This document shows positions 10,839-60,274 of a DNA stretch of 64,000 nt, in pieces (position 1 is the first letter of the stretch; every line of letters begins with the position of its first letter). A model generated the notes under the pieces. The model was not told the DNA's origin. It saw only the letters and a program-made list of their open reading frames with translations, and did no database searches. The stretch comes from Hygrocybe punicea. Lineage: Eukaryota; Basidiomycota; Agaricomycetes; Agaricales; Hygrophoraceae. A program made the position numbers and the translations under genes. The DNA is taken from contig OY744469.1 of NCBI GenBank assembly GCA_963556145.1, positions 2,948,767 through 3,012,766 on the forward strand. Direction: 5' to 3'.

Positions 10839-11561
10839 TGTAGATGTGGGTTTGGGGTGGCTTCAGAACAATATAAAGAAATGATCCTAACCAAGGGGTG
10901 TCAGCGTAGAAGTGACGGTGGATAAGTCAGTGTCGGGAATGGTAGTAAAAGGTGGAAATAGAAGTAAAAGTGTAAGCTGCCATGTAAAACTAAACATATA
11001 ACGACGAATCCAGTGATGAACAGAGTGAAAATGGACTAATAATGATGAACCCGATGGTGAATGGACTGAAAATGAATGAACCCGACGATGCCGATGATGT
11101 TGGGCATGGCGGGTCAGGTCGGGTCGGGTCGGAAACGATGAACAAATAACGAGAATAATGATAAGGACAATGAAGGGAACTATAAAAATCTAAGTGTCTA
11201 CAAGGACAAGCATTTGGAGTGATTAAAATGATTCTGACTATGAGGGAAACAGGGACTAATGGTATCTTTCTTTTTGTACGGTCGTTGGGGACCATTTTTA
11301 TAGTACATGTGTGTGTAATCTACTTTCGGACATGTCTATTTCGGCCGATAGTGTCACGACTAGTGGTCGTGTAATGGATCAGAGGGTCAAACGGTTGCAC
11401 GTTGTCAGCGGTAGTAGGGTTTTATGTTCAAGGGTCTTTTTTACAAGAGTGATTGTGTGGTTTTGTAGAGGTAGGGTCTCAGGGATTAGGTTCAAGTGAT
11501 GGAGTTGGGTGAAGTTTATTACGTCTAGTACAACTGCTAGGAGAAATACAAGAGGTCAAAG

Positions 11562-11990
11562 TTAGGGTAGACTATGTGTAGCGCGATGTCTTTTATACCA
11601 TTCCTCCCCTTCCGCAGTACCAGTGATGCGTCGTAAAGGTGACTCGCTCCGTCGCGTTGGTGGGTCTACGTCTCCCCCGGCATTGAGGTGATTTGTGATC
11701 ATGCCAGGCTGGCATGTGGATTCGTCACCAGATCCATAAGCGTCTGGGTACGCGTCACTATGGCTGTCTAGTTCTTCGTGCGGAGATTTGTTGCCGTGTG
11801 ACGTGTCATTGCTGCGGATCGTGGGGGGTCGGAACACTTCGAACGTTGATAGGGGGACCTCGGGATCGGTGGTGATGGGGATTCATTGCACCCCCCGGCA
11901 TATCGCGATGAGGATGAATGTGTATACGATGATGACAGCAATGATGGCGGCGATAACGGATTGGGTCATGATTGGAGGGAGTTTGTGCAT
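11562..11990 (-). pseudogene. LTR2 membrane-protein gene, one in-frame TGA
   Basis: From ATG 11990 the frame encodes a short lead (MHKLPPI), a hydrophobic signal-anchor-like segment (VIAAIIAVIIVYTFILIAI), the junction CRGVQ, then a TGA at 11883-11885. The same frame stays open for about 107 more codons: DPEVPLSTFEVFRPP, then an acidic, His/Ser-rich tail. In the divergent LTR2 copy at 46972-47178 the TGA position is Arg, so a CGA-to-TGA change is likely. Topology would be a single span with a cytosolic or lumenal C-terminus. Sense relative to the LTR as used by the chromovirus. Function unknown. Confidence 0.55.
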
Positions 11991-12199
11991 GAGTAGTGAA
12001 AGTGGGTGTCTTATTGTCCCGGTGTGAGTGATGGGAGTGGTGTGTGGTGTTCTGTGAGAGTTGGGGGTTTCAACCTCCGGTCCCGTGCCGTTCTCATGGG
12101 TTCGTTGATGAAGTGGTAGAGGTTCCTTCCTGATCGGGAGTGGGCCTCCATTTGGTATAAAGTGTGGTTGGATTCTTCGTCCCATCTCTCATCAATGCG

Positions 12200-12808
12200 A
12201 TGTTTCCCCACTCGTGCCATCATCTCATATTCTTCAAACGTTCTGCCCTCCTTAACCCGTCCCGCCCTGTCGCGGTTAATTGTATTATGCACGACTTCGC
12301 CTGCCGCCTCTCCGACTCTGATCGGGACTTGTATTGGGCTACTGGTCGTTGTTTCGCTTGCGGGAAGGCCAAACATCGTATGGAATGTTGCCACCTTGTT
12401 GTGCGCAACAAGAGGCTTCTGTGCAAGCTTCTGGCCAACCCGTTCGGTAAGTTCTGTCTTTCTTGGGGTGTTTGGTTATTGTTCTGATGGTTCTTTATGA
12501 TAGCGTTGGATGATGCATTCCCGCCCTCAGACTACTCGTCCGAGGACTCGATGCCGTCGCTTGCGACAAAGGTTTCCTGGGGGTCCAACTCCGACGAGGA
12601 CTTCTGGCCCCGGGACGCCTATGTGGACACCGGGGCGCCCTTCGGGCTGCGTAAGTTCCAGCCTTGTCTTCCCTTCAGCATCGCTGACACGTTTAGGCGC
12701 AATTGCCATGCAGCGATCGAACGGGCATTGGAAGACCAGATTTGTAACCTCGTTGAAGACACCGTCCTCCAGGAGGTAATTAAGGAAGAGTATCTCGTAG
12801 ATGAGTAG
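12200..12808 (+). CDS. LTR2 zinc-knuckle protein, two exons (copy 1)
   Basis: Exon 1 is 12200-12446 and exon 2 is 12504-12808; the 57-nt intron begins GTAAGTTCT and ends GATAG. The spliced product is 183 aa. The ATG at 12200 is chosen because it aligns with an ATG in all four LTR2 copies, while the open frame further upstream begins with GTG. Features are a DRDLYWATGRCF segment, then a zinc knuckle CFACGKAKHRMECC fitting C-x2-C-x4-H-x4-C, then Leu-rich LLCKLLAN at the splice junction. Exon 2 has an acidic Ser-rich region (SDYSSEDS, WGSNSDEDFW) and a C-terminal helix-like AIERALEDQICNLVEDTVLQ. It is antisense to the retroelement and divergent from the membrane-protein gene. A nucleic-acid-binding role is inferred from the knuckle. 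Confidence 0.62.
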
Positions 12809-13426
12809 ATACTCCTTGATCGTAACAGTCGTACTCCCTTTTGGGGAGTTGTAGTTGTAGTCTGGTCTGGTCCCACCCCTTTAAGGGGTTTGTAAATGTA
12901 AAAGCTTTTCCCCTGCTCCGCAGAGTGTGTGGATCGTAAGGGTTTGTCTGACAACCTATCAAAGATCGTCATGAAAATAAGTGGTATCTGAGGAAAAATG
13001 TATGGGGGTGACATATTTTCATGACAGATAGAAACTACAAAGAGAGGATGGAATGGGGATGTGTTGCAATGCGACATAGACAGGAAAATGGAGGGGAAAA
13101 GGAATATCCAAGAAAAAGATCTGAAATCTCACATATATCTCCAAAGGGACGAGGGGATGGGTATATAAGGCAAGTCCGAAGTCAGGGATTGAGTCCGATG
13201 AGATCCGTCTCCTATTATTAGAACTCCGGGGCTTCTGAGGCTGCCGGATTTGGTCCAAAAGTGGCTGTCACAAAGCGGCATGTGTCAGGTCACGTCGGTC
13301 ACGTTGGGTCACATCACGTTGGGTTACATTGGGTTGGAATGGGGATCGTTTGGAAGTGTCGGGTTCGTCCGGATTCGTGATATATTGACGGTACGGACTC
13401 AGAGGGAAGTTGAGTCTCTACACCGG

Positions 13427-23227: not shown

Positions 23228-23445
23228 TGTCATGAAAATATGTCACCCCCCATACATTTTTCCTCAGATACCACTTATTTTCATGACAATCTTTGACAGA
23301 TCACTAGACAAAACCTTATGACTCACACACCCTGCGGAGCGGGGAAAGGCTTTTACATTTACAAGCCCCTTAAAGGGGCGGAACCGGACCGGACTACAAC
23401 TACAACTCCCTGGAAGGGAGTACGACTATCACAACCAAGAAGTAT

Positions 23446-23663
23446 CTACTCATCTACGAGATACTCCTCTTTAATTACCTCCTGGAGGATGGCGTCTTCA
23501 ACGAGGTGACGAATCTGGTCTTCCAATGCCCGCTCAATTGCTGCATGACAATTGCACCTAAACATGTCAGCGATGCCGAAGGGAAGACAAGGCTGGAACT
23601 CACGCAGCCCGAAGGGTGCCCCAGTGTCCACATAGGCATCCCGGGGCCAGAAGTCCTCGTCGG
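23446..23663 (-). pseudogene. LTR2 zinc-knuckle gene, 3' part of exon 2 (5' LTR copy)
   Basis: Encodes the C-terminal region (DEDFWPRDAYVDTGAPFGL, AIERALEDQIRHLVEDAILQ) of the LTR2 protein. It was separated from the rest of its gene (34845-35201) by the LARD and LTR3 insertions. Confidence 0.7.
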
Positions 23664-23757
23664 TGTAGAGACTCGACGTCCCTCTGAGTCCGTATCCTCG
23701 ATATATCACGAATCCAGACGAACCCGCTGCCTCCATTCAACTCGCATTCGAACCCGA

Positions 23758-27608: not shown

Positions 27609-27610
27609 GT

Positions 27611-34844: not shown

Positions 34845-35201
34845 ACGGCATCGAGTCCTCGGACAAGTAGTCTGAGGGTGGGAACGCATCATCCAACGCT
34901 ATCATAGAAACTATCAGAACAATACTCAAACACCCCAAGAAAGGCAAAACTTACTGAACAGGTCGGCCAGAAGCTCACACAGAAGCCTCTTGTTGCGCAC
35001 AACAAGGTGGCAACATTCCGTGTGATGTTTGGCCTTCCCGCAAGTGAAACAACGACCAGTAGCCCAATACAAATCCCGATCAGAGTCAGAGAGGCGGCAG
35101 GCGAAGTCGTGCATAATACAATTAACCGTGACAGGGCAGGATGGGTTAAAGAGGGCAGAACGTTTGAAGAATATGAGACAATGGCATGAGTGGGGAAACA
35201 T
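34845..35201 (-). pseudogene. LTR2 zinc-knuckle gene, exon 1 and start of exon 2 (5' LTR copy)
   Basis: Exon 1 runs from ATG 35201 to about 34955 and keeps the knuckle CFTCGKAKHHTECC and LLCELLADLF. After an intron of similar length, exon 2 begins LDDAFPPSDYLSEDSM and is cut by the LTR3 insertion. Confidence 0.65.
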
Positions 35202-35410
35202 TGCACTGATGAGAAATGGGACGAGGTATCCAACCACACTTTATACTGAATGGAAGCCATTCCCAATCAGGAAGAAACCTCTACCACTTCAGCAATGAAC
35301 CCGTGAGAACGACATGTGACCGGAGGTTGAAATCTCTGGCTCTCGCAGGACACCACAGACCACTCCCGTCACTCACACCAGAACAATAAGACACCCCACT
35401 TTCATCACCC

Positions 35411-35610
35411 ATGCACAAACTCCCTTCAATCATGACCCATTCAGTTATCGCCGCTATCATTGCCGTCATCATCATGTAAGCATTCATCCTCGTAACGATA
35501 TGCCGAGGAGTACAACGAATCTCCATCACCATTGATCCCGAGATCCCCCTATCAACATTCAAGGCATTCCGACCCCCTATGATCCGCAGTAATGACATGT
35601 CACACGCTTA
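35411..35610 (+). pseudogene. LTR2 membrane-protein gene, truncated (5' LTR copy)
   Basis: ATG 35411. The hydrophobic segment VIAAIIAVIIM is followed by a TAA at 35477-35479 shared with the 3' LTR copy, then ITIDPEIPLSTFKAFRPP and a premature end caused by the about 380-bp deletion. Confidence 0.6.
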
Positions 35611-35759
35611 AATGTAAACCCTTGCTACCGCTGACATCGTGCAACTATTTGACCCACCGATCCATTACATGACCGCTAGTCGTGACATTAGGTCAAAGTT
35701 ATATTCAAATCCTTGCATATGTCCGCTTCATCTATTATGACACAATTCGCCTCTGGACT

Positions 35760-38190: not shown

Positions 38191-38498
38191 ACAAAGATTG
38201 AAAATTAAAATAAAACCTTGGTGCTCTTCTGCACCCGTTTCGCGTTGTTGAAAATGAAGAGTCGAGGCTTCAACTCGCGTGGGAAAGCCAACCGGCAGTT
38301 GCCGATTTCCTAAATGCGGTCGAGTTGCTATATATGGAACTATGCCTGGAACATTTTGAATATTCTGGCATGCACAATAATGCATGTATCAACAAAGTAA
38401 GACTCTCCAGAGATACAAGTGTAGAATACCTACTCCTAGATTAATTTGTGTATTTTATTTGATCCTACATACAGAGATATTCACAATGTGTTGTATTC

Positions 38499-40944: not shown

Positions 40945-41740
40945 CTGACCATTCAGTAGCTACTGCTCTAAGTTAAACTGGGCATCCAGCAACTGCTACA
41001 TCTGGTTAAACTGGAGGTACAGTAGCTGCTGCTCCGAGTTAAATTGACCATCCAGTAGCTACTGCTCTGGGTTAAACTGGGGGTCCAGCAACTGCTACAC
41101 CTGGTTAAACTGAAGGTACAGTAGCCGCTGCTCCGAGTTAAACTGGAGGTGCTGCAGGTGCTGCACCTGGTTAAACTGAGGGTACAGCAACTGCTGCAGA
41201 TGGTTAAACTGACCATCCAGTAGCTACTGCTCCAAGTTAAACTGCTGGTACAGCAAATGCTGCACCTGGTTAAACTGGAGGTGCAGCAAGTGCTGCACCT
41301 GGTTAAACTGACCATCCAGCAGTTACTGCTATGAGTTAAACTGGATGTCCAGCAAGTGCTGTATCTGGTTAAACTGAGCAATCAGTAGCAACTGCTCCGA
41401 GTTAAACTAGACATCCAGCAAATGCTGCACCTGGTTAAACTGAGCACACAGTAGCTGCTGTTCTCAGTTAACTTCATGGTCCAGCAAGTACTGCTTTCAG
41501 TTTAACTGCCAATGCAGTAAATAGTGCACACAGTTTAACTAAGCTCACAGTAACAACTGGGCTGGGTTTAACTGAGCTTTACAGTGAACTGAAGGCCTTA
41601 GCACTGCTGTCTAAAGTTTAACTGAACCTACCAGTAATTGCTAGGCCGAGTTTAACTGTATCACAGCATGCGGCACTGTCTGGGAGTTTAACTTAAGCCC
41701 CAGCTACTAGTGCAGATAGTACACCTAACTTTTGTACCTT
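40945..41740 (-). repeat. Subterminal motif array, right arm
   Basis: Mirror image of 35940-36730. Confidence 0.7.
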
Positions 41741-42993
41741 AACTGGGGTTGAGTTTAACTAAAACCCCCTGGACTATTGAAACGCCAGTCCAGGGAACAG
41801 AGACTACAACCCGTGCCTGGACAAGCACAGGCCTGCCAGAGTTTGTGCTCACACCAGAGAGCCCTGACCCTGTTGAAGACCCTGGCTACTGGGGGCAGAC
41901 TCCACGGGAGTCTTACCAGGAACTGGGGGACACTGAAGAACCAGGTGGCCTGTTCATCAGGAGATGGGTTCACTATAGCAACGATGAAGACCAAGAAAAG
42001 AAAGATGAAAGGGAAGGATCGGACCAAGAAAGAGGAAAGGGACCAGCTGAACCAGACCCAGGAGGACCCTCAGGTCCTGGGGACGAAGGAGGACCACCCA
42101 ATAAACCTCCGGGCGGCAGACATCCAGGCTGGTGGCCCCCCGGTGGAGGACCGCCAATGGGAGGACCGATTCACTACAACGCCACCCAGGCACCAACCCC
42201 CAAGTTCCCAAAACAAGCCGCACCTGAGCCATTCATGGGAGATCAATCGCAGTGGACAGCCTTCATCATAAAAGCACACATCTACTTTTCACATTTCCCA
42301 GAGTACTTCGCACGGGAACAGAACAAGTGTGTCTACCTCCTGAGCTGGTTTGGAGGAGAGGCCCCAAGGACCTGGGCCATGAACATTCTCAAGACCATGA
42401 GCAGATCGTTCCCCAGTCCCTTCATCAACCATTTTAACCAACTTCTTGACCATGCTGCCAAGCTATGGGGACCGATCAATGACGAACAAGATGCCCGAAA
42501 TGCTCTCGAACGAATTAGACAGACATCCACTATGGCCGAGTACCACACCGAGTTCATCAACTTGGCAACCCAGAGTGGATATAACGAACCAGCCCTGGTA
42601 CAAATCTTCTATAAGGGCCTGAAAGAGAGCATCAAGAACTTGATGGTCACCATCGTCAAGCCGACCACGGTCAACATGATGTTGGCCGTCTGCCTAGAAT
42701 TCGAGACCCGAATCCGCAATAGGCAAGCTGAACGAAAGGAGTTTGAACGAACAGCTCCAAAGAAAGAACCCAAACGGTTCAAGCCGAAAGAGACAAAAGG
42801 AGGAGCTGACCCCAGGGGGGAAGCAGTAAAAGCCGGACGTCTCACCGAAGAAGAAAGAACCAAATGATTATGCAAGGGAAGGTGCTTCCAATGCAACCGC
42901 CTTGGACACATGAGCAAGAATTGCCCAGACAGGAAGGCCAAGGCCAAGATGGCCAGAGCCGAAGAAGACCATGAAACAATGAAACCAGAAGAG

Positions 42994-44632: not shown

Positions 44633-46971
44633 AAGAGGATTTTCCTCAAACCTGAACAAAGAACCCATGATTGTTCAGGAACCAATCCAGAGAGTTAGCA
44701 GTACGTATCATAGCAATCTTAACCCCCACTCAAAACAAATATATTTTACTGTTGAATTGAATGGGGAAAAGAAACCTATGAACACACTGGCAATGCTGGA
44801 TAGTGGGGCGACCAACGTCTTCATGTCTCCAAGAGTCATCAAGAAAAACAACCTACCAATAAAAAAGCTACGACAGCCACTCGAGCTAAACAACATTGAC
44901 AACTCACCCAACATCTCAGGAGATATCACACATTACACCCAAATCGACATGCAAATCAAAGACCATTTAGAAACAACATGGTTTTACATCGTCGATATTG
45001 GATCCAATGACATAATACTCGGAATCAACTGGTTATGGACACACAACCCACAGTTGGATTTCGAATGAAAAACAATCACATTCCCACGATGCACAGGAAG
45101 ATGTAGACAAAAACACTGTGAACCGAGGACAACAACAACAACCCAGCAGATCTCAGCCACACAGCTGGAAGAAACCAAGACAGAGATCGAACTGGAACTG
45201 GAAATGGAACCGGAAGACTTCCAAAGTGTCCATGAAGAGATCAAAGCTGGGCGGACCTTATCCTTGATCCTTGCAGAAGCAACTACAATAAAGGAAGGAG
45301 AAAAGACGTTCAAGGAACTGGTCCCCAAAGAGTTCCAGGACTTTCGAGACATCTTCTCAAAAGAGGAGTCTCAATGGATGACCAGATGAAAGCCATACGA
45401 TCTTTCAATAGACCTAGAACCAGACACCGAACCACTCCGATCGAAACTCTACCCAATATCCCCAAAGGAGCAGACAACCCTGCAAGAATGGCTGGACGAA
45501 CAATTAGCCAAAGGATACATTTGAGAGTCCCACTCTGAATATGCAGCACCATTCTTTTTCATAAAAAAGAAAGATGGAACCCTTCGACCAGTTCAAGACT
45601 ACCGAAAGCTAAATGAGAAGACCATCAAGAACCAGTACCCCCTACCATTGTTGCAGCAACTGCTTGACCGGATGGCAGGGGCCAAGATCTTCACATCACT
45701 GGACCTACGATGGGGATACAACAACATCCATATAAAAGAGGGAGAAGAACACAAGCTCACGTTTATCACAGAGTTCAGACTCTTCGAACCGACGGTAATG
45801 TACTTCGGCATGTGCAACGTGCCAGCCACCTTCCAGAAAATGATGAATGATCTGCTCCACGATGTCATTAATCATTTTGTCATTGTTTATTTAGATGACA
45901 TCCTAAGCTTCTCGAAGAACTGAAAGGAACACACCGAACACGTATGAGAAGTCCTCAACAGACTCCAAGAAAACAACCTCTTCTGTAAACCAGAGAAGTG
46001 CAAGTTCTTCCAAGAAAGGATAGAGTACTTGGGACACATCATTAGCAAAGGGAAGGTCGAAATGGACAAGACAAAGGTCAATGCCATACTCGAGTGGCCC
46101 ACCCCCAAGAAAGTCAAGGATGTCCAAAAATTCCTTGGCTTTGCCAACTTCTACCGACGACTTCTTACACACTGCAAAACCGATCACCTCACTCCTACAG
46201 AAGAACCAGCGGTGGGAATGGGGACCCAAGCAGGATGAGGCATTCAACACCCTGAAGAAAGCATTCACCATGACCCTGGTGTTGGCAATGCCAGACCAGG
46301 AAATGCCTTTCATAGTAGAATGTGATGCGTCGGACTTTGCAACAGGGGCCGTGCTGTCCCAACGGAATCAAGAAGGAGTTATCCACCCCATCGCCTTCTT
46401 GTCACAAGTGATGAACAATGCTGAATGAAATTACGAGATCTACAATAAGGAGCTCCTCACAATCATCCGGGTGCTTGAAGAATGGAGGCACTTCCTTGAA
46501 GGAGCAAAGCACAAAGTTACGGTAATCTCCGATCACCAGTGTCACGACTAGCAGTTGTGTAATGGATTGGAGGGTCAAACGGTTGCATGATGTCGGCGGT
46601 AGTAGGGGTTTATCTTTTTACGAGAGTGATTGTATGTTTTTGTAGAGGTAGGGTCTCAGGGATAAGGTTTGAGTGATGGAGTTGGGTGAAGTTTGTTACG
46701 TCTAGTACAACTGCTAGGAGAAATACAAGAGGTCAAAGTTAGGGATCTACATGCTTCTTGCTCGACGTCTTTTATACCCTTCGTCCCCTCCCGCAGCCTC
46801 TATGAGTCGTATGAGCACCGACTCACTCTTAGTCGTCCTGTGAGTAGACACGTCAGCCTTGCTGTGGTGCCCTACGTTCGTCATCGCCAGAACTGCGATG
46901 CCAGCATGTTCCACAGTTACGTGGCACCGGCTTGATGTGTCATGGGTGGGTCTGCAAGGGGACGCAACACC

Positions 46972-47178
46972 TCAGCGGTCTGACTCGTTGTTGTTGTTGC
47001 TGCCATGTGACATGTTGTTGCTGTGGATTGTGGGGGGCTGGAATGCCTCGAATGTTGACAGGGGAATCTCGGGGTCGATCACCCCATGGATTCGTCGTAC
47101 TCCTCGGATTATTGTTGCGAGGAGGAATGCGTACACGATAACGATAGCAATAACGGCGGCGGTGATTGACGGTGTCAT
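46972..47178 (-). CDS. LTR2 membrane protein (divergent copy)
   Basis: 68 aa from ATG 47178. Hydrophobic anchor ITAAVIAIVIVYAFLLATI, then RGVRRIHGVIDPEIPLSTF and EAFQPPTIHSNNMSHG, ending in an Asn-rich tail. It aligns along its length with the minus-strand ORF at 11562-11990 with mostly conservative changes, has no internal stop, and is shorter because of a different C-terminus. Confidence 0.55.
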   Translation of the reverse strand: MTPSITAAVIAIVIVYAFLLATIIRGVRRIHGVIDPEIPLSTFEAFQPPTIHSNNMSHGSNNNNESDR

Positions 47179-47403
47179 GATTCGGTCTTTGACAGGCGTG
47201 GGTGGTGATGGTGAGGGTTGAGTGTCTTTTGTCTATGTGTGAACGATGGGAAGAGTGGCATCATCTGATGGAAAGTGGAGTCTGAACGTCTGGTCACATG
47301 CGGGTCTTGCTGGCAGTTGCCGGTGGGTTGTTCTTGGTGATAGGGTCTTCTTGGTTGTGTATAAAGCTTGGTGGCTTCTGCGTGCTTGTCCTGCAGAAAT
47401 GCG

Positions 47404-48006
47404 ATGTGTCTCCACCCTTATCACCAAGTCACTTTCTTCAAGGCTTCTTTGCTCTTCCCCCCAACCTCAGTTGTCAAGGTTAATTGTTATACATTCCACC
47501 ACCTTATACAACTCTCAGCTTCTGATCGGGATCTCTATTGGGCTCTGGGTTGGTGTTTCGCTTGCGGGAAGGCGAGGCATTGCATGGAGTGTTGCCCGCT
47601 GGTTAAGGTACACAAGGTCCTTTTGTGCCAGTTACTGGCCAACCCGTATCGTGAGTGTTTTGGTTGGTGGATCGTCTGGAGTCTCCTGACTGAGTCTTTT
47701 ATTCTAGAACTGGATGATGCGTGGAGGTCGGAGGAGTCGTCCCCCGAGATACCACCGCTAGTCACAGTGAGCTGGGGCTCGTCGTCTGAGGACCTGAGGG
47801 GTCCTTCTCCGGAGCCAGTCGGAGACTTGACTTATCGTGAGTCTGGTTTCCCACTGCCATTCAGGGTAGCATCGAGGTTTATGGTCATTTGTCGCACAGC
47901 GATTGAAAGGTCTTTGGAAAGGGAGGTTGAGCGGTTCCTGGATGACATGCGCGTCCAGTTGCAAGAGTCGGGGTCATTGGTCTTGGATGCGATTACTATA
48001 GAATAG
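47404..48006 (+). CDS. LTR2 zinc-knuckle protein (divergent copy)
   Basis: Exon 1 47404-47650, intron 47651-47707 (57 nt, GTGAGTG to TTCTAG), exon 2 47708-48006. The intron interrupts the same codon position as in the other copies. The knuckle reads CFACGKARHCMECC, preceded by SASDRDLYWALGW and followed by LLCQLLANPY. Exon 2 keeps LDDAWRSEES, VSWGSSSEDL, AIERSLEREVERFLDDM. The spliced product is about 181 aa. Because the intron is a multiple of three without stops, the unspliced frame is also open. Retention of knuckle, splice position and C-terminal helix despite nucleotide divergence argues for past protein-level constraint. Confidence 0.62.
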   Translation: MCLHPYHQVTFFKASLLFPPTSVVKVNCYTFHHLIQLSASDRDLYWALGWCFACGKARHCMECCPLVKVHKVLLCQLLANPYRECFGWWIVWSLLTESFILELDDAWRSEESSPEIPPLVTVSWGSSSEDLRGPSPEPVGDLTYRESGFPLPFRVASRFMVICRTAIERSLEREVERFLDDMRVQLQESGSLVLDAITIE

Positions 48007-49948
48007 TGTAATCGTGTCGTTTGTACTTGTATCTGGTCTGGTGCCCCTTCTAGGGGTTTGTGAATGTAATGTCTCCCCCGCTCTGCAGGGTGTGTGAGTT
48101 GTAAGGGTTTGTCTGACAATCTGTCAAAGATCGTCATGAAAATAAGTGGTATTTGAGGAAAAATGTATGGGGGTGACATATTTTCATGACAACCAGAACC
48201 TCACATACTTTGCCTCCGCACGAACTCTTACTAGAAGACAAGCCAGATGGCGCCTATTCCTCACACACTTTGATTACGAAATACAACACTGCCCAGGAAG
48301 ACTTGGAGGGAAGCCAGATCAACTCTCCCGGAGGGTCGACCATGAACCTCCAGGACCAGATAATCAGGGGCAGACCCTCCTGAAACCGGAAAGCTTCAGG
48401 ATAAAGGCAATGCGACGGGGACATGGAAACATTATTGAAGACCACCTGATCCTAAAGAAGATCCGACAGTCCGAACAACTCAATGGAGAAGTCCGCACAG
48501 CGCTAGAAGCCATCAACCAAAAAAGCCCCCAGAAGCTCAAGAAGGGGCTTGAAGACTGGAACACCGAAGACAACCTTGTTCTGTACAAAGGAAAGGTTTA
48601 TGTCCCAAACGACCCTGACATCTGGCAGGAAATACTCCGGCTACACCACGATACGTTACCAGCAGGACACGCCGGAGTCCACAAAACAACCGAACTCGTA
48701 TCCAGAAACTACTGGTGGCCAGGGATGACAACCTATGTGAAAAAATATGTTGAATCTTGTGACACCTGCAACCGAAAGAAGGACACACCACGGAGGCCAC
48801 CAGGTCGACTACAAACAATCCCAACCAATGAACGACCCTGGGAGACTGTTACGAACGATTTCATCGTGCAACTCCCAGAGTCCGATGGCTATGACTCTGT
48901 CTGGGTCATAGCCGACCACACCCTAAAAGAAGCACACTTCATCCCCTGCAACTCTGACATTGATACAGAACAAACGATCGATCTATATATCAACCATATT
49001 TGGCAACTCCACGGACTCCCAAAGAAAATGATATCCGACCAAGGACCGCAATTTACCTCAAAACTAATGAAGGGGGTGTTCAAATGCCTCAGGATAGAAG
49101 GTGCACTTTTCATGGCATTCCATCCCCAAACGGATGGACAGAGCGAACGAATTAACCAAGAACTTGAACAATATCTTTGAATATTCTGCAACTACTGACA
49201 GAACGACTGGGCAAAGTACATCCCGATGGCTGAATTTGCCTACAACAACAGAGTTCATTCATCCACCAAACACTCCCCCTTCTACGCATCGCGAGGATAC
49301 CACCCACACTCCATCATAACTCAAGTCGCCAGCTCCTCGGTTCCGAAAGCCAACGAAATCGCCGATAGAATCCAATCACTCCTAACCAAGATATCCTCCA
49401 TGCTCCGCCTGTCACAAGAAACAATCAAACACTATTATGACAAAAAACACGCAGAACCCCCAGACTTCCTGGAAGGAACCAAAGTCTGGCTCGACGCCCA
49501 AAACATCACGACAACAGCCCCATCAAAGAAGCTCGCCGACAAGCATCTTGGACCCTACAAGATAAAGAAAAAACTCTCACCCCTCAATTACGAACTCGAA
49601 TTACCAACCAAGATGAAGATCCACCCGGTCTTCCATGTAAACCTCCTATACTTACACAAACCCGATCAGATCGAAGGCCAGACACCGCCTCCACCCCCAC
49701 CAATTGTCGTCGAAGGGGAAGAACAATGCAAAGTTGAAAAGATACTTGATGGCTGGCTATGGCGCAACCAGAAACAGTACCTGATCAAGTGGGAGGGATA
49801 TAACACCTCTGAAAATTCATGGGAACCACTCCAAAATCTCGAAGGTGCCGCAGATGCAATCGAAGACTTCCACAAAGAACACCCCGACTTCAACTGGAAA
49901 AAACGACAGCGCCATCAATCATCCTCGAGAATCTCCAGTGATTCATAG

Positions 49949-49959
49949 GAGGGGGGTAA
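49949..49959 (+). promoter_or_regulatory. Chromovirus polypurine tract
   Basis: AGGAGGGGGGTAA (from 49947) directly abuts the 3' LTR, as expected for the plus-strand primer; this fixes the LTR2 sense orientation. Confidence 0.75.
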
Positions 49960-50176
49960 TGTCATGAAAATACATCACCCCCATACATTTTTCCTCAGAT
50001 ACCACTTATTTTCATGACAATCTTTGACAGATCGCTAGACAAAACCTTATGACTCACACACCCTGTAGAGCGGGGAAAGGCTTTTACATTTACAAGCCCC
50101 TTAAAGGGGCGGAACCGGACCGGACTACAACTACAACTCCCTGGAAGGGAGTACGACTATCACGACCAAGAAGTAT

Positions 50177-50784
50177 CTACTCATCTATGAGATACTCCTC
50201 TTTAATTACCTCCTGGAGGATGGTGTCTTCAACAAGGTGACAAATCTGGTCTTCCAATGCCCGCTCAATCGCTGCATGACAATTGCGCCTAAACGTGTCA
50301 GCAATGCCGAAGGGAAGACAAGGCTGGAACTCACGCAGCCCAAAGGGTGCCCCGGTGTCCACATAGGCGTCCCGGGGCCAGAAGTCCTCGTCGGAGTCGG
50401 ACCCCCAGGAAACCTTCATCACGAGCGACAGCATCGAGTCCTCGGACGAGTAGTCCGAGGGTGGGAACGCATCATCCAACACTATCATAGAAACTATCAG
50501 AACAATACTCAAACACCCCAAGAAAGGCAAAACTTACTGAACAGGTCGGCCAGAAGCTCGCACAGAAGCCTCTTGTTGCGCGCAACAAGGTGGCAACATT
50601 CCGTGTGATTTTTGGCCTTCCCGCAAGTGAAACAATGACCAGTAGCCCAATACAAATCCCGATCAGAGTCGGAGAGGCGGCAGGCGAAGTCATGCGTAAT
50701 ACAATTAACCGCGACAGGGTGGGATGGGTTAAAGAGGGCAGAACATTTGAAGAATATGAGACGATGGCACGAGTGGGGAAACAT
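50177..50784 (-). CDS. LTR2 zinc-knuckle protein (3' LTR copy)
   Basis: Exon 1 50784-50538, intron 50537-50482 (56 nt, GTAAGT to GATAG), exon 2 50481-50177. The exon 2 length (305 nt) and splice position equal copy 1. The knuckle reads CFTCGKAKNHTECC, so the expected His is Asn with a His one place later; zinc binding may be impaired. It is antisense to the chromovirus, with the start in the middle of the LTR and the stop near its 5' end. Confidence 0.58.
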
Positions 50785-50993
50785 CGCATTGATGAGAAAT
50801 GGGACAAAGGATCCAACCACACTTTATACTGAACGGAAGTCATTCCCAATCAGGAAGAAACCTCTACCACTTCAGCAATGAACCCGTGAGAACGACATGT
50901 GACCAGAGGTTGAAATCTCCGGCTCTCACAGGACACCACAGACCACTCCCGTCACTCACACCAGAACAATAAGACACCCCACTTTCATCACCC

Positions 50994-51422
50994 ATGCACA
51001 AACTCCCTTCAATCATGACCCATTCAGTTATCGCCGCTATCATTGCCGTCATCATCATGTAAGCATTCATCCTCGTAACGATATGCCGAGGAGTACAACG
51101 AATCTCCATCACCATTGATCCCGAGATCCCCCTATCAACATTCGAGGCATTCCGACCCCCTATGATCCGCAGTAATGACATGTCACACGGCAATGAACCC
51201 CTGCACGAAGAACTAGACAGCCATGGTGACACGTGCCCAGACGCTTACGAATCTAGTGATGAATCCATGTGCCAGCCCGGCACGATCACAAATCACTTCG
51301 ATGCCAAGGGAGACATACACCCACCAGCACAATGGAGCGAGTCATCCTTACGACATGTCACTGGTACTGTGGAGGAGAGGGAACGGTATAAAAGACATCG
51401 CGTTACATGTAGCCTACCTTAA
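50994..51422 (+). pseudogene. LTR2 membrane-protein gene (3' LTR copy), TAA at codon 23
   Basis: ATG 50994 (MHKLPSIMTHSV). Hydrophobic VIAAIIAVIIM, then TAA at 51060-51062. The frame is afterwards open for 120 codons to 51422 (ITIDPEIPLSTFEAFRPP, GNEPLHEELDSHGDT, a Cys-containing tail). The TAA overlaps a GTAAGC donor-like word, so splicing around it cannot be excluded. Confidence 0.5.
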
Positions 51423-51635
51423 CTTTGACCTCTTGTATTTCTCCTAGCAGTTGTACTAGATGTAACAAACATCACAACCTCCATACCGCTCGAACTTTAA
51501 TCCTGAGACCCTACCTCCACAAACATACAATCACTCTCGTAAAAAGACCCTTGAACGTAAACCCTCACTACTGCTGACATCGTGCAACTATTTGACCCAC
51601 CGATCCATTACATGACCGCTAGTTGTGACAACGTC

Positions 51636-52841
51636 CCTCTGACACTATTCAAGTCCGATGTTTCCCAAGCCTACCGCCACATGCCTCTACACTTCCTCTA
51701 TCAAGTGAAGCAGATTGTCACCGTCAACAATGAGCGCTTCGTGGACTGGAACAACAACTTTGGGAACCACAGGGCGTATCGCATCTGGGCAGCCTTCATG
51801 GCACTTGTGATATGGATAGCTATATATGTTAAATCTCTCACTGACTTGTTTACTTACGTTGATGACACATTTTCTTTCGAGGTATCTGGCCATGTAACTT
51901 ACTACGCTCCATATGACATGTTCTACCCAGATAAGCAGGCGCAACTCTTACTCCTCCGGGACGATATTGGCCTCCCACACGAAAAAGACAAGCAGGAATT
52001 TGGTGACACACTTATGATCATTGGCTTCCAATGTGACGCAAATGCCATGACATTTACCATGGTCCCTACCACTTGTGAGGACCTTCTGGGTGCCATCACG
52101 GAGTTCATCACAGCCCCACACGGGGGCAGGTGCCACTCCCTCCAGAAATTCCAACGTATGGCTGGTTGGGTCAACTGGGCCCTGAATGTCTTCCCACTCC
52201 TATGACCCTCCCTCTCCAACATTTATGATAAGATGGCTGGCAAATCCAACCCCAATGCACTCGTCTTCCTGAACAAGGCAGTCATCGATGACTTGTTATG
52301 GCTTCATCACCACGTAGAGTCAGCACCGGGTGTTCACGTCCTCACTGCATCTGCCTGGGGCCCGCTCGAAGCTGACGCCACTATATATGGTGATGCATGT
52401 CTCACTGGTCTGGGGTTCGTTTACCCCACCACCAGCCTTGCCTTTCAACATGCTCTGCCAGCATATGCCCCAGCTGCAAACATTTTTTACCTGGAAGCTT
52501 TAGTTGTCCTTTGGGCTCTTGACCATGCTGCGTCCTCTTTGTTTTCAGGTCGTCTCATGGTTTACACTGACAGTTTGAACACTTTCAATATGTTCAACAC
52601 CCTTGCGGCAAAACCACTCTACAACCCAATTGTCAAACTTGCCGTTGATCTCATGATCACTCACTCAATTGACTTGCGTGTGTGCCTCATTGAAGGATCC
52701 TCCAATGTCGTGGCCGATGCTCTCTCCCATGACTGGATAGATGTCGCCCTCCAACACCAACCAAACCTCCACCTCTGTGTGCGCCCGCTGCCCACCCTCA
52801 TAAAACCCCCTCGTGACATGCTGGGGGCTGTGAAGAAATGA
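51636..52841 (+). pseudogene. Ngaro-like element 1 RT-RNase H, 3' part
   Basis: Continues RT from FKSDVSQAYRHMPL to the catalytic TYVDD (about 51860), then IGFQCDANAMTFTM and FQRMAGWVNW. A TGA at 52203-52205 stands where Arg is expected. The RNase H-like part follows (IYGDACLTGLGF, FYLEALVVLWAL, VYTDSLNTFNMFNTL, VVADALSHDW). The RT stop TGA overlaps the recombinase ATG (ATGA at 52838-52841). Confidence 0.82.
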
Positions 52842-55405: not shown

Positions 55406-55440
55406 AATGTAAAGAAGGGGAAGCGGTACAAAGGGTGGGT

Positions 55441-55737
55441 GCGAGAAACCAAAAAACTAGGGTCTACAAGGAATCAGGAGAATCAAGAAGAGAAAGAAGA
55501 AGAACATACTCGGGAGGAGATGAGAGCGTTGGTAAAAGCAAAGTCTCCTCCAGAGTAAATAAGTAAAACGAAGTGAAACCGCGACGTGGGAAAGCGGGTA
55601 GAAACCCCGGGGGTGAAACTCGAGGAAAGGAGAGGTGCAAGGGCTCTCAATTGCAGAGGGCGAGTGCAGTCCGTACAAGTCTTGAACCATAACGTCGGGC
55701 ATGATTAGACTACAATAAAGTAAACTTTAAATTCAGC
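55441..55737 (-). repeat. Repeat A2 of Ngaro-like element 2
   Basis: 297 bp, matches 59978-60274. Confidence 0.88.
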
Positions 55738-55856
55738 TAATCAAGCACCTTTCAGTTTTTTGGTGAAAGAGATAACTGAATGCGGCCTTGTCCTGAAACA
55801 GCGGCAAGGCCTGGAATTGATAAGTATGTAATACACGAGAAGAAACAGTGCGGTGC
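55737..55856 (-). repeat. Repeat B1 of Ngaro-like element 2
   Basis: Matches 55286-55405 and abuts A2. Confidence 0.85.
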
Positions 55857-56078
55857 TAAAAGCTAAGGAAATTGGTAGGAGAGAGTAGAGAATGGGGTGG
55901 AGAAAAAATATGGAGCAAAGGGATGGTCCGAGGTACAACACAACGACGCAAAAGGTCCAATAAAAGGGTGAGAGAAATGTGTCTGTGGGATATGAAATAA
56001 AAGGCAGCGAAAAGTGTCCAGGAAAGGTATGGAGATGAAATTGTGAGCCCGGAAGGGCAATGGTGAGCACCGGCAGTG

Positions 56079-57062
56079 TCAGCGACGCGCAAATAAGAAG
56101 GCGGCTTGCAGAGTCAGGTGTTTCCGGACATAGATCTGCCAAGCGTTGGAAGCCCAACGGCTGATGCATTGGATCAGGTAAGGCAGAACGCCAGCAGAGG
56201 CAAGGTCGGTTGCCCCGCCGGAGCGGAGAGAGTGGCCACCGATGGACGGGTCCGGAAAATGGGAGCACAAGCGGCGGAGGAACCAAGAACGGGTGGGGAG
56301 AGAGCTGTCTGAGCGGAGAAAAAGTTCGGCACGGAAGGGGAAAAGGTGGTCATGCAACTCAAGGTAACGGGTGAACAGGAGGAGGGGGTTGTCCGGAGTC
56401 GTAGTATGGTGGAGCAGAACACGGGAACCTTCGAAGAAACGGTCCACCTTGTGGCCCGGAAGGAAGAAGTCGAAGGACTGATCATGGAGGGTCACCGACC
56501 CGCGCATAATGACCTTGCAGTAGTCTTGGAGATGAAGGGCGTCCGGCCAAACAAGTTCACCAAGGCGGAGAAGGCCATGAAAAGCCGTTGAGGTCAGAGC
56601 AACGAAGAGCGCATCGTCATAAGAGGGGTGGGCAAGGTAAGAGGTGCAGAGGGAGGAGAGTTCGGTCCGGGAGAGGGCGCGTTTGCGGGTGACGGCCATC
56701 GAGCGGAGTTCCTTGCAACCCACAAGTGTTTTGGAAACAAGGTGGTGGCGACAGAAAGTGCGGACGTCTGGGTAGAACAGTTCGAGTTGGTTGCAGATAC
56801 CGGAGAGGTAGTTGTCGACAGATTGGGGTTTGATATAGAAACACATGTAGACTATGTAGTAACTGAACGTGTCCGCCGTTGGCGCTGGGGAGAAGTGGTG
56901 GTTGGAGCAGAAACCAAGGTAAGATTTGAGAGCAGAAGAATATGCAGCGGCCGTACTGGGTTCAATAGCGCAACCCATCGCGATTGCCCATTCGTGTTGC
57001 AACCGTGAGATCGGCCAAGGTTCCCAATGGGGTTGCCTGGCTGAACGGCTTGTCGTGTTCAT
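56079..57062 (-). CDS. Tyrosine recombinase of Ngaro-like element 2
   Basis: 327 aa from ATG 57062, overlapping the RT stop as ATGA. The N-terminal SAM-like core domain holds STAAAYSSALKSYLGFC and SVDNYLSGICNQLE. The catalytic domain has the first Arg region LLRLGELVWPDALHL, the HxxR box HSLRSGGATDLASAG and ISRWASNAWQIYVRK with the candidate Tyr nucleophile. Length is typical for this class. It joins linear or circular cDNA to the target by site-specific recombination. The frame is complete, so this protein may still be functional. Confidence 0.88.
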   Translation of the reverse strand: MNTTSRSARQPHWEPWPISRLQHEWAIAMGCAIEPSTAAAYSSALKSYLGFCSNHHFSPAPTADTFSYYIVYMCFYIKPQSVDNYLSGICNQLELFYPDVRTFCRHHLVSKTLVGCKELRSMAVTRKRALSRTELSSLCTSYLAHPSYDDALFVALTSTAFHGLLRLGELVWPDALHLQDYCKVIMRGSVTLHDQSFDFFLPGHKVDRFFEGSRVLLHHTTTPDNPLLLFTRYLELHDHLFPFRAELFLRSDSSLPTRSWFLRRLCSHFPDPSIGGHSLRSGGATDLASAGVLPYLIQCISRWASNAWQIYVRKHLTLQAAFLFARR

Positions 57063-58474
57063 AACGGTACTGCCCCCAGTGGAAGACGAGGGGGTTCAAA
57101 AGAGACAATGCACATCATAGGCACAACGTAGTGGACGACGGTGTTGCGGCCACATGAGAGTGCATCTGCGATGACGTTGTCTGTACCAGGTATGTGGAAG
57201 ATGCAGAACTGAACATTGAAGTGGATGGAGAGGTCGACGGCAGCCATTAGGATGGGGTTGTGGGAGGGTTGGGCACACAGAGTGTTGAAGATGTTGACTG
57301 TGTTGGAGTTGTCGGTAAAGAGAGCAACGCGGGAAGGGAGGGGACGGATGTTGACGAGGGTGTAGTGAAGTGCAGAGAGAACGGCGAGGGCCTTGAGATA
57401 AAAAATCCAGTCATCCGGCACGTTGAAAAGACACTGGTGACCATTAATGAGTCGCCGGCCAGGAGTTGCAAAGGTACACAGTGCCGCCAGGAGCTCCACC
57501 TGGTGGTCAGGTGGCATAGTAATTGTGAGGGCATTGGGATCCACCTGGAAGCCGATAATCATGAGTGACTCCCCCCATTCCTGCTTCTTTTCCTCATGTG
57601 GAATGCTGAGGTCATCCCACAGACCAAGTAAGCGGACCTGTTCGGTTGGCATGTATTTGTTGTACGGGCCGTACCATGCGAGTTCGTCGGCGAATTCCCA
57701 AGAAAAATTGTCGTCCACATAAGTGAAGAGGTCCAGGAGTAGGAGAATGTAGATGGCGATCCAGGTGATGAGGCAGGCGAAGGAACCGAAAATGCGGCCG
57801 CCGGCACTGTTGCCAAAATGGTTGCAACAATTCACGAAGCGCTCAGACTCGAAGGTCATGACCTGGCGTATTTGCCAAAGCGGCGCCATCGGCATCAGGC
57901 GGTAGGCACGTGACATATCAGACCTGAAAATGACAAGACGACGGGAGGGGTGGTCGGTGTGCATGCGATGCAAGGCGGATCCGAGTTGATGTAAGTTGTC
58001 CATCCGCACAAAATGGTCCTCCTTGGGAATCAAGGAGTTCTGTGAATAGGGTTCAGCGCTCTGGTCGACGACCATGCAGAGCTTCGAAGAGTGCAGCTTG
58101 AGTATCACCCCAAGCAGCATGCTGTACATCCCAGGAAGGAGGTCGTGGCTGAAGGAGGGTGAAAGCTGCCTGAGCGCGACCTCCGCGTCATGTTGTTCCA
58201 ACAGGAACACGCGATGGGAAGGGTCCGAGATTGGTCGATGCGAGTTGTCCCAGGTCATCGGGTAGTCGAGGGCAGAAGTGCATGCCCAAGGCCAGAAGCC
58301 GGTGTGTAAGGCATTGCAGACGGAGTCCACAAAGGGACGATTGGGGTGCGAGGCAAGATAACTCACGAAGACATCAACACGGATGGGAGTGATGATGGTG
58401 AAAAGTCCGGGATTGTTTTGGATCGTGGAAACGGCAGCGGTGTTTTGAAGCTCATTCGCGGGCACTGCAGGCAC
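57059..58474 (-). CDS. RT-RNase H of Ngaro-like element 2, internally deleted
   Basis: An open frame of 471 codons, -1 relative to gag; the first codon of the open frame is GTG, so translation probably depends on frameshifting. RT parts are MYSMLLGVILKLH, LVVDQSAEPYSQNSLIPKE, RSDMSRAYRLMPM, the catalytic TYVDD (about 57725) and IGFQVDPNALTITM. Relative to element 1, about 110 residues between FATPG and FYLKALAVL are missing, removing the thumb and the first RNase H acidic residue region. The end keeps LFTDNSNTVNIFNTL and GTDNVIADALS. RT may fold but RNase H is unlikely to work. Confidence 0.8.
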   Translation of the reverse strand: MPAVPANELQNTAAVSTIQNNPGLFTIITPIRVDVFVSYLASHPNRPFVDSVCNALHTGFWPWACTSALDYPMTWDNSHRPISDPSHRVFLLEQHDAEVALRQLSPSFSHDLLPGMYSMLLGVILKLHSSKLCMVVDQSAEPYSQNSLIPKEDHFVRMDNLHQLGSALHRMHTDHPSRRLVIFRSDMSRAYRLMPMAPLWQIRQVMTFESERFVNCCNHFGNSAGGRIFGSFACLITWIAIYILLLLDLFTYVDDNFSWEFADELAWYGPYNKYMPTEQVRLLGLWDDLSIPHEEKKQEWGESLMIIGFQVDPNALTITMPPDHQVELLAALCTFATPGRRLINGHQCLFNVPDDWIFYLKALAVLSALHYTLVNIRPLPSRVALFTDNSNTVNIFNTLCAQPSHNPILMAAVDLSIHFNVQFCIFHIPGTDNVIADALSCGRNTVVHYVVPMMCIVSFEPPRLPLGAVPL

Positions 58475-58580
58475 GGGTGGTTCGTGGAGACTGGAAAGGG
58501 CGATGGAAAGGCGTTCCGGCCCGTCTTCGTCCCAAACGAGGTAGCAGGCGTATTTGGGCTGTCGGGACCAAGGGTCTGAT

Positions 58581-59949
58581 TTACTTAGGTGGGCAGTCGG
58601 GTGCCCTGTGTGCAGTAGAATGGCACTTGGAGCAATGGTGGACGTAATTGCACTTGCTGGCGGAGTTCAGGCACTTGTTGTCATTCCAGCGGCGGCACAC
58701 GTCCCGTCATCGAGTTTGCGCGGGGATTCCAGGCGTTCGCCGAGATTCGTGTTGTCTATCCCAAGAGTGGATCCAGTGGAGTTGCAAATCTGCGAATTCG
58801 TGTGCGTTGGTAAGGAGGATATCCCGGCATTGGGCGACGCAGTGGAGAGGTACCGAGGTACCTCTCCAGGGGCTCACGCAGGACTCAAGAGGTAAGACGG
58901 GATGGATGGGATGATGATGGACTGACTACTACATCGGGAAGGCTACTAACTAGGTCAACCGTGGGAGCCTGGTCACGTGACTGGCAGGTCCCACTACTCC
59001 AGCGGATGCGGATGCCTTTGTCAAGGGAGATGACACGTTGATTTTGATCTGCGGGAAGGGCGGCGAAGAGCCCGGAAACGTAGCGCCCGAAACGCTGTAG
59101 TTCGGATTCGCACTGCAGGAAGATGAAGGCGGTGGCCTCAATGGTTGGTTCCCAAGCAGTGATCCATTCACCATGGGAGGTGACGGTTTTAGCAGGGGAC
59201 GAAGGCCCAAGTGAGATTTCAAAGGAACCGACCTGTTCCTTGCGTGAGTTCCCAGTGGAAGTGGTGAAGAGTCTGGAGAGGACGTGATCAAGGTTGACGG
59301 CTCATCCGGAGACGAGGCTGGTCCACTCAGACTGAGGGAACTGCGGGCACGAAGTGGAGTTGAGAATGGAAGCGATGGTGAGTTTGATATCTCGTGAGAA
59401 GTTGTCAAGGAGGGTACACATTTCGTGTAAGGACAGATGGAGGAGCGATGGATGGAGAGATTCTTGGATGACCCACGGGAAAAGAGTGATATCGACGCGC
59501 CATTTCGTAGGACTAGGTTGCTCATCGGCATCGTCGAGGGACTTGCTGGCTCCACGTTTAGTCGGTCGAGTAAGGACAAGGCTGTCTTCCCCGCGGCTGT
59601 CCCTGGGTTCTGCCTCCTGGTCTCCCTCGGCATAACTGATGTCAATAAGTCGATTGAGTGTGTTTGAGCGCTCGGAACCGCCCTTTCGTATGTTGTCATA
59701 GCTGTCGAGCATCCAGCAATAGGCTCTGAAAGCCTGTCGATTAACGGTATCGTCTTCGTGGATGGCTCCGAAAGGTATCGCGGCGGTGAGTTCCAGGATG
59801 GCCGTGGGCTTGTCGATCTTGCCTGCACGGTAATCCTCGGTGAGCTTGACACACATGTCCCTAACCATTGGCTCAAAGGTCGTTTCCAGGTCGAAGGACG
59901 TCGCCTGGGTTTGACTTTGTGCCTCGTTGTTGTTCTCATTTTGAGGCAT
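58581..59949 (-). pseudogene. Gag of Ngaro-like element 2, with TGA stops and a solo LTR insertion
   Basis: ATG 59949 (MPQNENNNEAQSQTQ). It aligns with gag of element 1: LFPWVIQESLHPSL, SEWTSLVSG-AVNLDHVLS, RVISLDKGIRIR. TGA at 59302-59304 and 58707-58709. A 159-bp solo LTR (58843-59001) interrupts it; without that LTR the frame continues (QCRDILLTNAHEFADLQLHW) to a Cys/His cluster (CRRWNDNKC, CNYVHHCSKCHSTAHRAPDC) and a TAA at 58581-58583. Confidence 0.75.
58843..59001 (-). mobile_element. Solo LTR related to TR-GAG-1
   Basis: 159 bp, TGGAGAGGTACC to CACTACTCCA. Shares TGGAGAGGT, TCAACCGTGGGA and GGTCACGTGA with the 155-bp TR-GAG-1 LTR. Flanks are GCAG (58839-58842) and GCGG (59002-59005), a 4-bp duplication with one transition. 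Confidence 0.7.
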
Positions 59950-59977
59950 TCAGATGACGATGTAACGAAGTTAAATT

Positions 59978-60274
59978 GCAAGAAACCAAAAAACTAGGGT
60001 CTACAAGGAATCAGGAGAATCAAGAAGAGAAAGAAGAAGAATATACTTGGGAGGAGACGAGAGCGTTGGTAAAAGCAAAGTCTCCTCCAGAGTAAATAAG
60101 TAAAACGAAGTGAAACCGCGACGTGGGAAAGCGGGTAGAAACCCCAGGGGCGAAACTCAAGGAAAGGAGAGGTGCAAGGGCTCTCGATCGCAGAGGGCGA
60201 GTGCAGTCCATACGAGTCTTGAACCGTAATGTTGGGCATGATTAGACTACAATAAAGTAAACTTTAAATTCAGC
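59978..60274 (-). repeat. Repeat A1 of Ngaro-like element 2
   Basis: 297 bp, matches 55441-55737. Its outer end meets the fold-back MITE. Confidence 0.88.

What the first reader, a model, noticed from the sequence alone, without database searches (positions are those of the whole stretch)
49960..51630. LTR2 retroelement LTRs carry a divergent pair of protein genes
Four LTR2 copies (11352-13026, 23228-35689, 46540-48191, 49960-51630) contain, antisense, a two-exon gene for a CCHC zinc-knuckle protein and, in sense, an ORF for a single-span membrane protein. The two diverge from mid-LTR. Exon 1 is 247 nt from the ATG in three copies, and the 56-57 nt intron splits the same codon in all three. 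The copy at 46540-48191 is strongly diverged in DNA yet keeps the knuckle, splice site, membrane anchor and the DPEIPLSTFEAF motif. LTR-encoded or LTR-driven antisense genes are known in animal retroviruses (MMTV Sag, HTLV-1 HBZ), but I know of none with this pair in a fungal chromovirus.
Basis: partly seen in the sequence, partly recalled or inferred. Interest (0 to 1): 0.88.

Follow-up and report, generated by a model that had tools for sequence, protein, structure and literature searches.

The report
Retrotransposon LTR carrying two divergent genes
In a fungal retrotransposon the end repeats themselves contain two facing-away genes, one for a small spliced zinc-knuckle protein and one for a small membrane protein, kept by natural selection and in at least one case swapped between elements as one cassette.

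Summary
A self-priming, chromodomain Ty3/gypsy retrotransposon in a 92-Mb fungal genome carries two genes inside U3 of its ~1.6-kb LTR. Antisense: a two-exon gene (247-nt exon 1, 55-57-nt intron, 178-183 aa) with a CX2CX4HX4C knuckle and its own TATA. Sense: a small membrane-protein ORF, conserved over its first ~58 codons. 79 of 84 exon-1 places in the genome have the divergent partner. In subfamily B, older (shared) variants give omega 0.27-0.37 in both genes; the sense C-terminus (0.94) is neutral. Relatives of the knuckle gene occur in contigs of other public collections. The focus copy keeps the antisense frame and splice sites, but its sense ORF stops at codon 16 and its knuckle histidine is lost. 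New here: at least two deeply diverged cassette types sit on one gag-pol backbone. One recent element with identical LTRs has an A cassette but gag, pol and R-U5 of the B lineage, joined near the start of R, as strand transfer in reverse transcription would give. Best reading: trans-acting accessory or regulatory proteins encoded wholly in U3. Expression and biochemical role are untested.

The parts
49960..51630 (+). 3' LTR (type A), U3 49960-51420, R-U5 51421-51630 (U3/R border inferred from TATA and self-primer)
   Evidence: TGTCA..TGACA ends, TSD, PPT upstream, TATA and self-primer
50538..50784 (-). antisense gene exon 1 (82 codons + 1 nt), zinc-knuckle module
50482..50537 (-). 56-nt intron GTAAGT..TGATAG
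50177..50481 (-). antisense gene exon 2 with stop; acidic, C-terminal long helix predicted
50822..50829 (-). TATA box (GTATAAAG) of the antisense gene; 38 nt from the ATG in 34 of 37 A and B copies
51015..51422 (+). sense membrane-protein frame; in this copy stopped at codon 16; constrained part is the first 58 codons (51015-51188)
51387..51395 (+). TATA box of the genomic RNA (string in 39 of 44 LTR sequences)
51421..51431 (+). R start / self-primer AACTTTGACCT, reverse complement of the PBS
49947..49956 (+). polypurine tract AGGAGGGGGG
23228..23666 (+). 5' LTR of the same element, first piece
34845..35687 (+). 5' LTR of the same element, last piece (exon 1 at 34956-35201 minus strand; sense frame 35432-35611 with the same codon-16 stop)
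35690..35700 (+). primer-binding site AGGTCAAAGTT
42169..42861 (+). part of gag of the element; its own knuckle CFQCNRLGHMSKNC follows, after a stop in this copy
48146..49948 (+). end of pol in two open pieces: integrase and chromodomain
46540..48191 (-). solo LTR type B inside pol (TSD ACCAG)
47404..48006 (+). antisense gene of the B LTR: exon 1 47404-47650, intron 47651-47707, exon 2 47708-48006, 181 aa
46972..47178 (-). sense membrane ORF of the B LTR, 68 aa, open
11352..13026 (-). solo LTR type A (TSD GATAG)
12200..12808 (+). antisense gene of that LTR: exon 1 12200-12446, intron 12447-12503, exon 2 12504-12808, 183 aa

Best explanation
The LTR of a self-priming chromodomain Ty3/gypsy element carries in U3 a two-gene cassette facing outward from mid-U3. 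SHOWN by sequence: two protein genes under purifying selection; an antisense TATA 38 nt from the ATG; an intron only in the antisense gene, as expected because an intron in the sense gene would be lost at retrotransposition; two diverged cassette types on one gag-pol backbone, with one clear recent exchange. INFERRED: the proteins act in trans for the element, since solo LTRs keep both genes and one element seems to have integrated with a broken sense gene. The antisense protein (basic knuckle exon; acidic second exon ending in a predicted long helix) would be a regulator derived from, or resembling, a Gag nucleocapsid module, acting on element RNA or DNA. The sense protein would be a small N-out/C-in membrane anchor. 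Exchange would be favoured because the first strand transfer in R renews U3 as a block. Type-specific control of sister copies would explain why diverged types persist.
For: Selection and frames. Divergent pairing 79 of 84. Antisense TATA at 38 nt in 34 of 37. Third group C with both genes, in two decayed copies. Homologues elsewhere with the same exon-1 module, two of them running on to LDDEW after the junction. Knuckle: P0004 matches zf-CCHC in register but below cut-off; all 13 PDB sequences at E<=10 are knuckle proteins, none significant; hhalign with the element's own Gag knuckle, probability 87.5 over 25 columns. Backbone and swap. Recent activity: neighbouring same-strand LTRs taken as pairs are 100% (L018/L019) and 99.94% (three others) identical, L074/L076 1627 of 1627.
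Against: No RNA or protein data. The sense gene is open over 58 codons in only 3 of 8 A and 21 of 29 B copies. Both LTRs of the focus element carry the same sense stop, so that gene may be dispensable (or the LTRs were converted later). No homologue of the sense protein was found. Pfam cut-offs are not reached for the knuckle. Group A alone gives weak selection signals (exon 1 shared omega 0.83). The model of exon 1 is poor (pLDDT 58); that of exon 2 is confident only in its helix. The exchange rests on one clear element. No function was tested.
Confidence: 0.65

Rival explanations
1. The LTR carries a captured host gene pair as passenger; the proteins serve no function for the element and conservation reflects recent capture.
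For: An intron and a divergent promoter look like a host locus; Pfam names neither protein.
Against: No clear host copy among 84 exon-1 places: 79 have the sense partner; of the other five, C8:2483915, C40:4767943 and C2:484685 (L069) lie in LTR pieces, C35:3050211 near one, and C39:1818915 is placed only by inference. The LTR setting was read in fetched copies only; for the rest it is inferred from the pairing. Omega is below 1 within B, between A and B, and between A and C (0.48 exon 1, 0.27 exon 2).
Confidence: 0.1
2. Conservation is at the DNA or RNA level (enhancer, packaging or antisense-RNA control), and the reading frames are incidental.
For: U3 is regulatory, and antisense transcripts of LTR elements can act as RNA (PMC7264820, passages).
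Against: Proposed frames have median omega 0.57 (exon 1) and 0.32 (sense N-terminus) between A and B against 0.78-1.10 and 0.50-1.27 in the other five frames; donor GT kept in 35 of 37 copies; A and B align without gaps over exon 1 and the first 58 sense codons; the sense C-terminus, equally in U3, is neutral.
Confidence: 0.05
3. The genes are real but act as self-restriction factors (as Ty1 p22 does): the knuckle protein interferes with Gag or RNA of the same type and limits copy number.
For: Knuckle resembles the element's own Gag knuckle; genes persist in solo LTRs, so dose could rise with copy number; types diverge and are exchanged, and for Ty1 subfamily-specific restriction and recombination are reported (titles and abstract starts).
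Against: An A cassette sits on a B gag-pol backbone in a recent insertion, so specificity need not rest on matching gag; pure restriction would not easily be kept by selection on the element.
Confidence: 0.25
4. A and B differ because the LTR genes evolve very fast on a slowly evolving backbone, without exchange.
For: Type is weakly associated with R-U5 sequence (between minus within 0.03; 3 of 1000 shuffles reach it).
Against: The C3 element: A cassette, but pol 98.6% identical to B element L019 (B-B pair L019-L027 97.4%; C3 to A elements L005 93.1%, window 90.1%), and last ~147 nt of the LTR 97-100% B.
Confidence: 0.05

Closest known systems
MMTV Sag (superantigen gene in U3; recalled, papers seen only as a listing)
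   Same: membrane-protein ORF in sense inside U3
   Different: no sequence relation seen; here a ~60-aa conserved core in a fungal retrotransposon, with a divergent antisense partner
HTLV-1 HBZ (recalled; antisense promoter inside the 3' LTR mentioned in PMC7264820, passages)
   Same: spliced antisense gene started from the LTR
   Different: HBZ is a bZIP protein coded largely outside the LTR (recalled); here both exons lie inside U3, so solo LTRs keep the gene
Antisense aORFs of plant LTR retrotransposons: Grande gene23, RIRE2, Retand (PMC7264820, passages)
   Same: conserved antisense extra gene of an LTR retrotransposon
   Different: those lie between pol and the 3' LTR, not inside the LTR
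Ty1 p22/p18 copy number control (PMC4599808, PMC7055915, PMC12530519; titles and abstract starts)
   Same: self-encoded small protein related to Gag; subfamily differences in restriction, recombination
   Different: p22 is part of Gag itself in sense; here a separate antisense gene in U3
Podospora crapaud LTR subfamilies (PMC10787394, abstract start and passages)
   Same: diverged subfamily-specific 5' half of the LTR on one element family
   Different: no LTR genes mentioned in the passages seen

Membership tests
Ty3/gypsy chromovirus, Tf1/sushi self-priming type | integrase with chromodomain | tested here: met
   Chromo E 6e-13, Integrase_H2C2 8.5e-22
Ty3/gypsy chromovirus, Tf1/sushi self-priming type | PBS complementary to the 5' end of its own RNA (11 nt; recalled criterion) | tested here: met
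   PBS AGGTCAAAGTT exact in 6 of 7 elements read (window, L018, L020, L023, L028, L074; L007 one mismatch); its reverse complement AACTTTGACCT lies 34-36 nt after the TATA in 37 of 39 LTRs; the RNA start itself was not measured
Ty3/gypsy chromovirus, Tf1/sushi self-priming type | RT phylogeny within the clade | not tested
   no tree made
CCHC zinc knuckle protein | CX2CX4HX4C spacing | tested here: met
   7 of 8 A and 29 of 29 B copies; P0001, P0003, P0004, P0007; not met in the focus copy or in P0002, which lacks the first Cys
CCHC zinc knuckle protein | Pfam zf-CCHC cut-off reached | tested here: not met
   no family for one A and one B protein; P0004 E 0.1, 13.2 bits against 20.8
MMTV Sag | sequence homology / superantigen activity | tested here: inconclusive
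   no Pfam family for the A protein, only DUF7027 far below cut-off for B, and no homologue found; activity not testable
HBZ-type antisense gene | bZIP domain | tested here: not met
   no Pfam match
Plant antisense aORF | between pol and 3' LTR | tested here: not met
   both exons inside U3
Ty1 p22-type restriction factor | in-frame fragment of Gag | tested here: not met
   separate antisense gene; only a 25-column knuckle match to Gag
Ty1 p22-type restriction factor | inhibits transposition in trans | not testable with these tools
   no assay

The most novel reading that the evidence does not exclude
U3 of this retrotransposon family is an exchangeable two-gene cassette with several ancient types, held apart from a homogeneous gag-pol backbone and moved between elements by strand transfer in R. 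The types persist because each type's knuckle protein controls copies of its own type, a self/non-self system of the retrotransposon in which solo LTRs act as long-lived resident genes.
Probability: 0.3. Interest if true: 0.92.

Novelty: new variant of a known kind. Interest (0 to 1): 0.82.

Why it matters
LTRs are treated as control regions, and solo LTRs as dead. Here many LTRs, solo ones included, keep two genes that may be expressed, so gene annotation and repeat masking would both miss them. It sets retroviral genes in U3 (Sag) and antisense genes (HBZ) beside a fungal retrotransposon, and it suggests why a gene would live in U3: reverse transcription copies it into both LTRs and can swap it as a block. 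Related proteins in other public collections suggest a wider, unnamed family.

Tried and rejected
Host-gene passenger, DNA-level constraint and fast evolution without exchange were weighed and set low (see rivals). The full ~140-aa sense ORF as the conserved unit was rejected: codons after 58 are neutral in B (shared omega 0.94, p 0.76) and a new A element has only 66 aa. Scans of viral contigs gave no relatives of either protein. The exon-1 model was too poor for a fold search (pLDDT 58); the exon-2 model (pLDDT 64, one helix 59-98) was not searched either. The species was not identified (rRNA search unanswered). CACGTGACC between the two genes is in only 28 of 44 LTR sequences and is not claimed as a control site. 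Literature: in 10 searches (several lists capped at 6-20 papers) no listed title or abstract start, and no passage read in three papers, reports genes inside LTRs of fungal elements; open-licence papers only.

Results against: exon-1 singletons in B also have low omega (0.38); group A shared variants give 0.83 in exon 1 and 0.60 in exon 2; the reverse-strand shift-1 frame of the sense block has omega 0.50. The exon-2 A-B omega (0.43) rests on a protein-guided alignment, which leans towards low values. Identities come from a lax alignment and are not used. Rows dropped: one search used 23 of 29 B copies (four partner LTRs, L036 and L038 out); one search used 14 of 29 B copies (those with the LTR end inside the match); one search lost L031 and L033 of 25 B copies; L002 and L010, segmental duplicates, are counted only among the 44 sequences.

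Full report
SETTING. The window lies in an unnamed 92.2-Mb genome (42 contigs); the window has GC 47.8% and CpG observed/expected 0.77. The focus LTR is the 3' LTR of a Ty3/gypsy element running from 23228 to 51630: chromodomain integrase, polypurine tract before the LTR, TSD ATGTC/ACGTC. Its PBS (35690) is the exact 11-nt reverse complement of AACTTTGACCT at 51421, which lies 34-36 nt after the TATA in 37 of 39 LTR sequences with that TATA: a Tf1/sushi-like self-primer (the comparison with Tf1 is recalled). Taking that as the start of R, U3 is 49960-51420 and both genes lie inside it (the sense stop codon touches the border).

THE ANTISENSE GENE. In 37 copies (8 of type A, 29 of type B), with exon 1 cut at 247 nt, a GT donor follows in 35 (L011 and L025 have AT), the intron is 55-57 nt, and the protein ends after 178-183 residues in 35 (L036 stops at 82; L038 is a truncated piece). 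ATG in 35 of 37. Start, splice sites and length are all kept in 7 of 8 A and 24 of 29 B copies. Genome-wide, exon 1 gives 85 rows, 82 without a stop. A third group C (L069, L070; both decayed) keeps the same plan. GTATAAAG lies 38 nt from the ATG in 34 of 37, 39 nt in 2, absent in 1, and at 38 nt in C copy L069 and in L072. The protein joins a basic exon 1 (pI 9.3 and 8.9 in one A and one B copy) with CX2CX4HX4C to an acidic exon 2 (pI 4.2 and 4.3). A model of exon 2 shows only a long C-terminal helix (residues 59-98, mean pLDDT 80-92 over 61-90); the rest is unconfident.

THE SENSE GENE. Downstream, facing away, lies an ORF with one strongly hydrophobic stretch (residues 5-24) and the block DPEIPLSTFEAFRPPTI..ND.SH. 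Group C has a hydrophobic stretch + NPEIPLS..PPT. It is open over 58 codons in 3 of 8 A and 21 of 29 B copies. In the focus element both LTRs share a TAA at codon 16, so it probably integrated with this gene already broken.

SELECTION. Among 23 of 29 B copies (partner LTRs of one element and two poor copies dropped), variants shared by two or more copies give omega 0.33 (exon 1), 0.27 (exon 2) and 0.37 (first 58 sense codons) against a mutation spectrum from the non-coding LTR; p 0.005, 4e-7, 5e-4. The rest of the sense ORF gives 0.94. Singletons give 1.08 (exon 2) and 1.13 (whole sense), as expected for decay after insertion, but 0.38 in exon 1. Between A and B the median omega is 0.57 for exon 1 (other five frames 0.78-1.10) and 0.32 for the sense block (other five 0.50-1.27). 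Group A alone (8 copies) is weaker: 0.83, 0.60 and 0.48.

PAIRING. 79 of 84 exon-1 places have the sense partner divergently, median gap 232 nt. By identity bands, 37 are B-B, 35 A-A, 1 B-A and 6 have an intermediate or third type.

RELATIVES ELSEWHERE. Three protein searches: the antisense alignment found one protein, from a 1976-base JGI contig (E 2e-20), and a second round 15 including it, 14 with E <= 1e-5, from JGI and ENA contigs of 0.6-3.8 kb, probably environmental. P0001-P0004 and P0007 carry the exon-1 module; P0001 and P0002 run on, and P0005, P0006 and P0008-P0015 carry, the exon-2 part LDDEW (or close). P0001 and P0002 look like read-through of an in-frame intron at the same junction (inference). 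The sense alignment found none. Whether these lie in LTRs is unknown.

KNUCKLE AND GAG. The element's Gag has its own CCHC (GRCFQCNRLGHMSKNC). hhalign joins it to the antisense family over 25 columns, and all 13 PDB sequences at E <= 10 are knuckle proteins, none significant. Descent from a nucleocapsid is plausible, not proven.

CASSETTE EXCHANGE. Comparing 8 A with 14 B copies, LTR positions 1-75 and 1501-1671 differ between types no more than, or hardly more than, within them; about 150-1425 differ by 0.26-0.56 (within 0.05-0.23); 76-150 and 1426-1500 are intermediate. In pol the A-B dS is 0.28-0.39, the one A-A comparison 0.35, B-B 0.01-0.09; for exon 1 the A-B dS averages 0.67 and dN 0.38. 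One element at C3 settles that exchange happens: its LTRs are identical over 1627 nt and carry an A cassette with an intact 183-aa antisense gene, yet its pol is 98.6, 98.2 and 96.8% identical to B elements L019, L024 and L027 (B-B pair L019-L027: 97.4%) and 93.1 and 90.1% to A elements L005 and the window's; its gag flank is 94.5-96.2% identical to four B flanks and 86.6% to the A flank of L007; its last ~147 LTR nt are 97-100% B. The right junction lies between about 1441 and 1520 (R begins at 1465), the left one within the first ~120 nt or before. In R-U5, 3 of 9 A copies (C3 among them) have a B copy as nearest neighbour, though type and R-U5 remain weakly associated. R is where minus strong-stop DNA jumps between templates (established retroviral replication), so a jump to the other RNA plus a switch back near the U3/pol border would give this product.

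MECHANISM. Shown: genes, selection, arrangement, recent transposition, one exchange. Inferred: divergent transcription, trans action, nucleic-acid binding by the knuckle protein, membrane anchoring. An A cassette sits on a B backbone in a recent insertion, so the products seem not to need a matched Gag or Pol. I think a regulatory/accessory role is most likely, with type-specific copy control the boldest form.

LIMITS. No RNA data; counts of copies are lower bounds (only the best candidates are scored in DNA searches); many copies were seen only as match rows; the host is unidentified; pol comparisons rest on three A and three B elements, those of the C3 gag flank on one A and four B.

Noticed in passing
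35917-38647 and 39025-41755: Inverted repeat with arms of 2731 nt differing at one base, 377 nt apart, holding 33-bp minisatellites; it lies inside gag of the focus element.
   Followed up: partly
46540-51630 and G000:C35:3032776-3037847: The nested A and B LTRs of the window have 99% identical counterparts in inverted order about 33 kb away, so L002 and L010 are not independent copies.
   Followed up: partly
51582-52841: Reverse-transcriptase-like frames (YVDD), judged by eye, of another element into which the focus element inserted.
   Followed up: no
27709-33924 and 55440-60276: Direct repeats 95-98% alike, probably LTR pairs of two other elements.
   Followed up: no
L071, G000:C41:2802357: LTRs that look like recombinants within the cassette: L071 A-like in the sense gene and B-like after it, C41 B exon 1 with an A sense gene.
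   Followed up: partly
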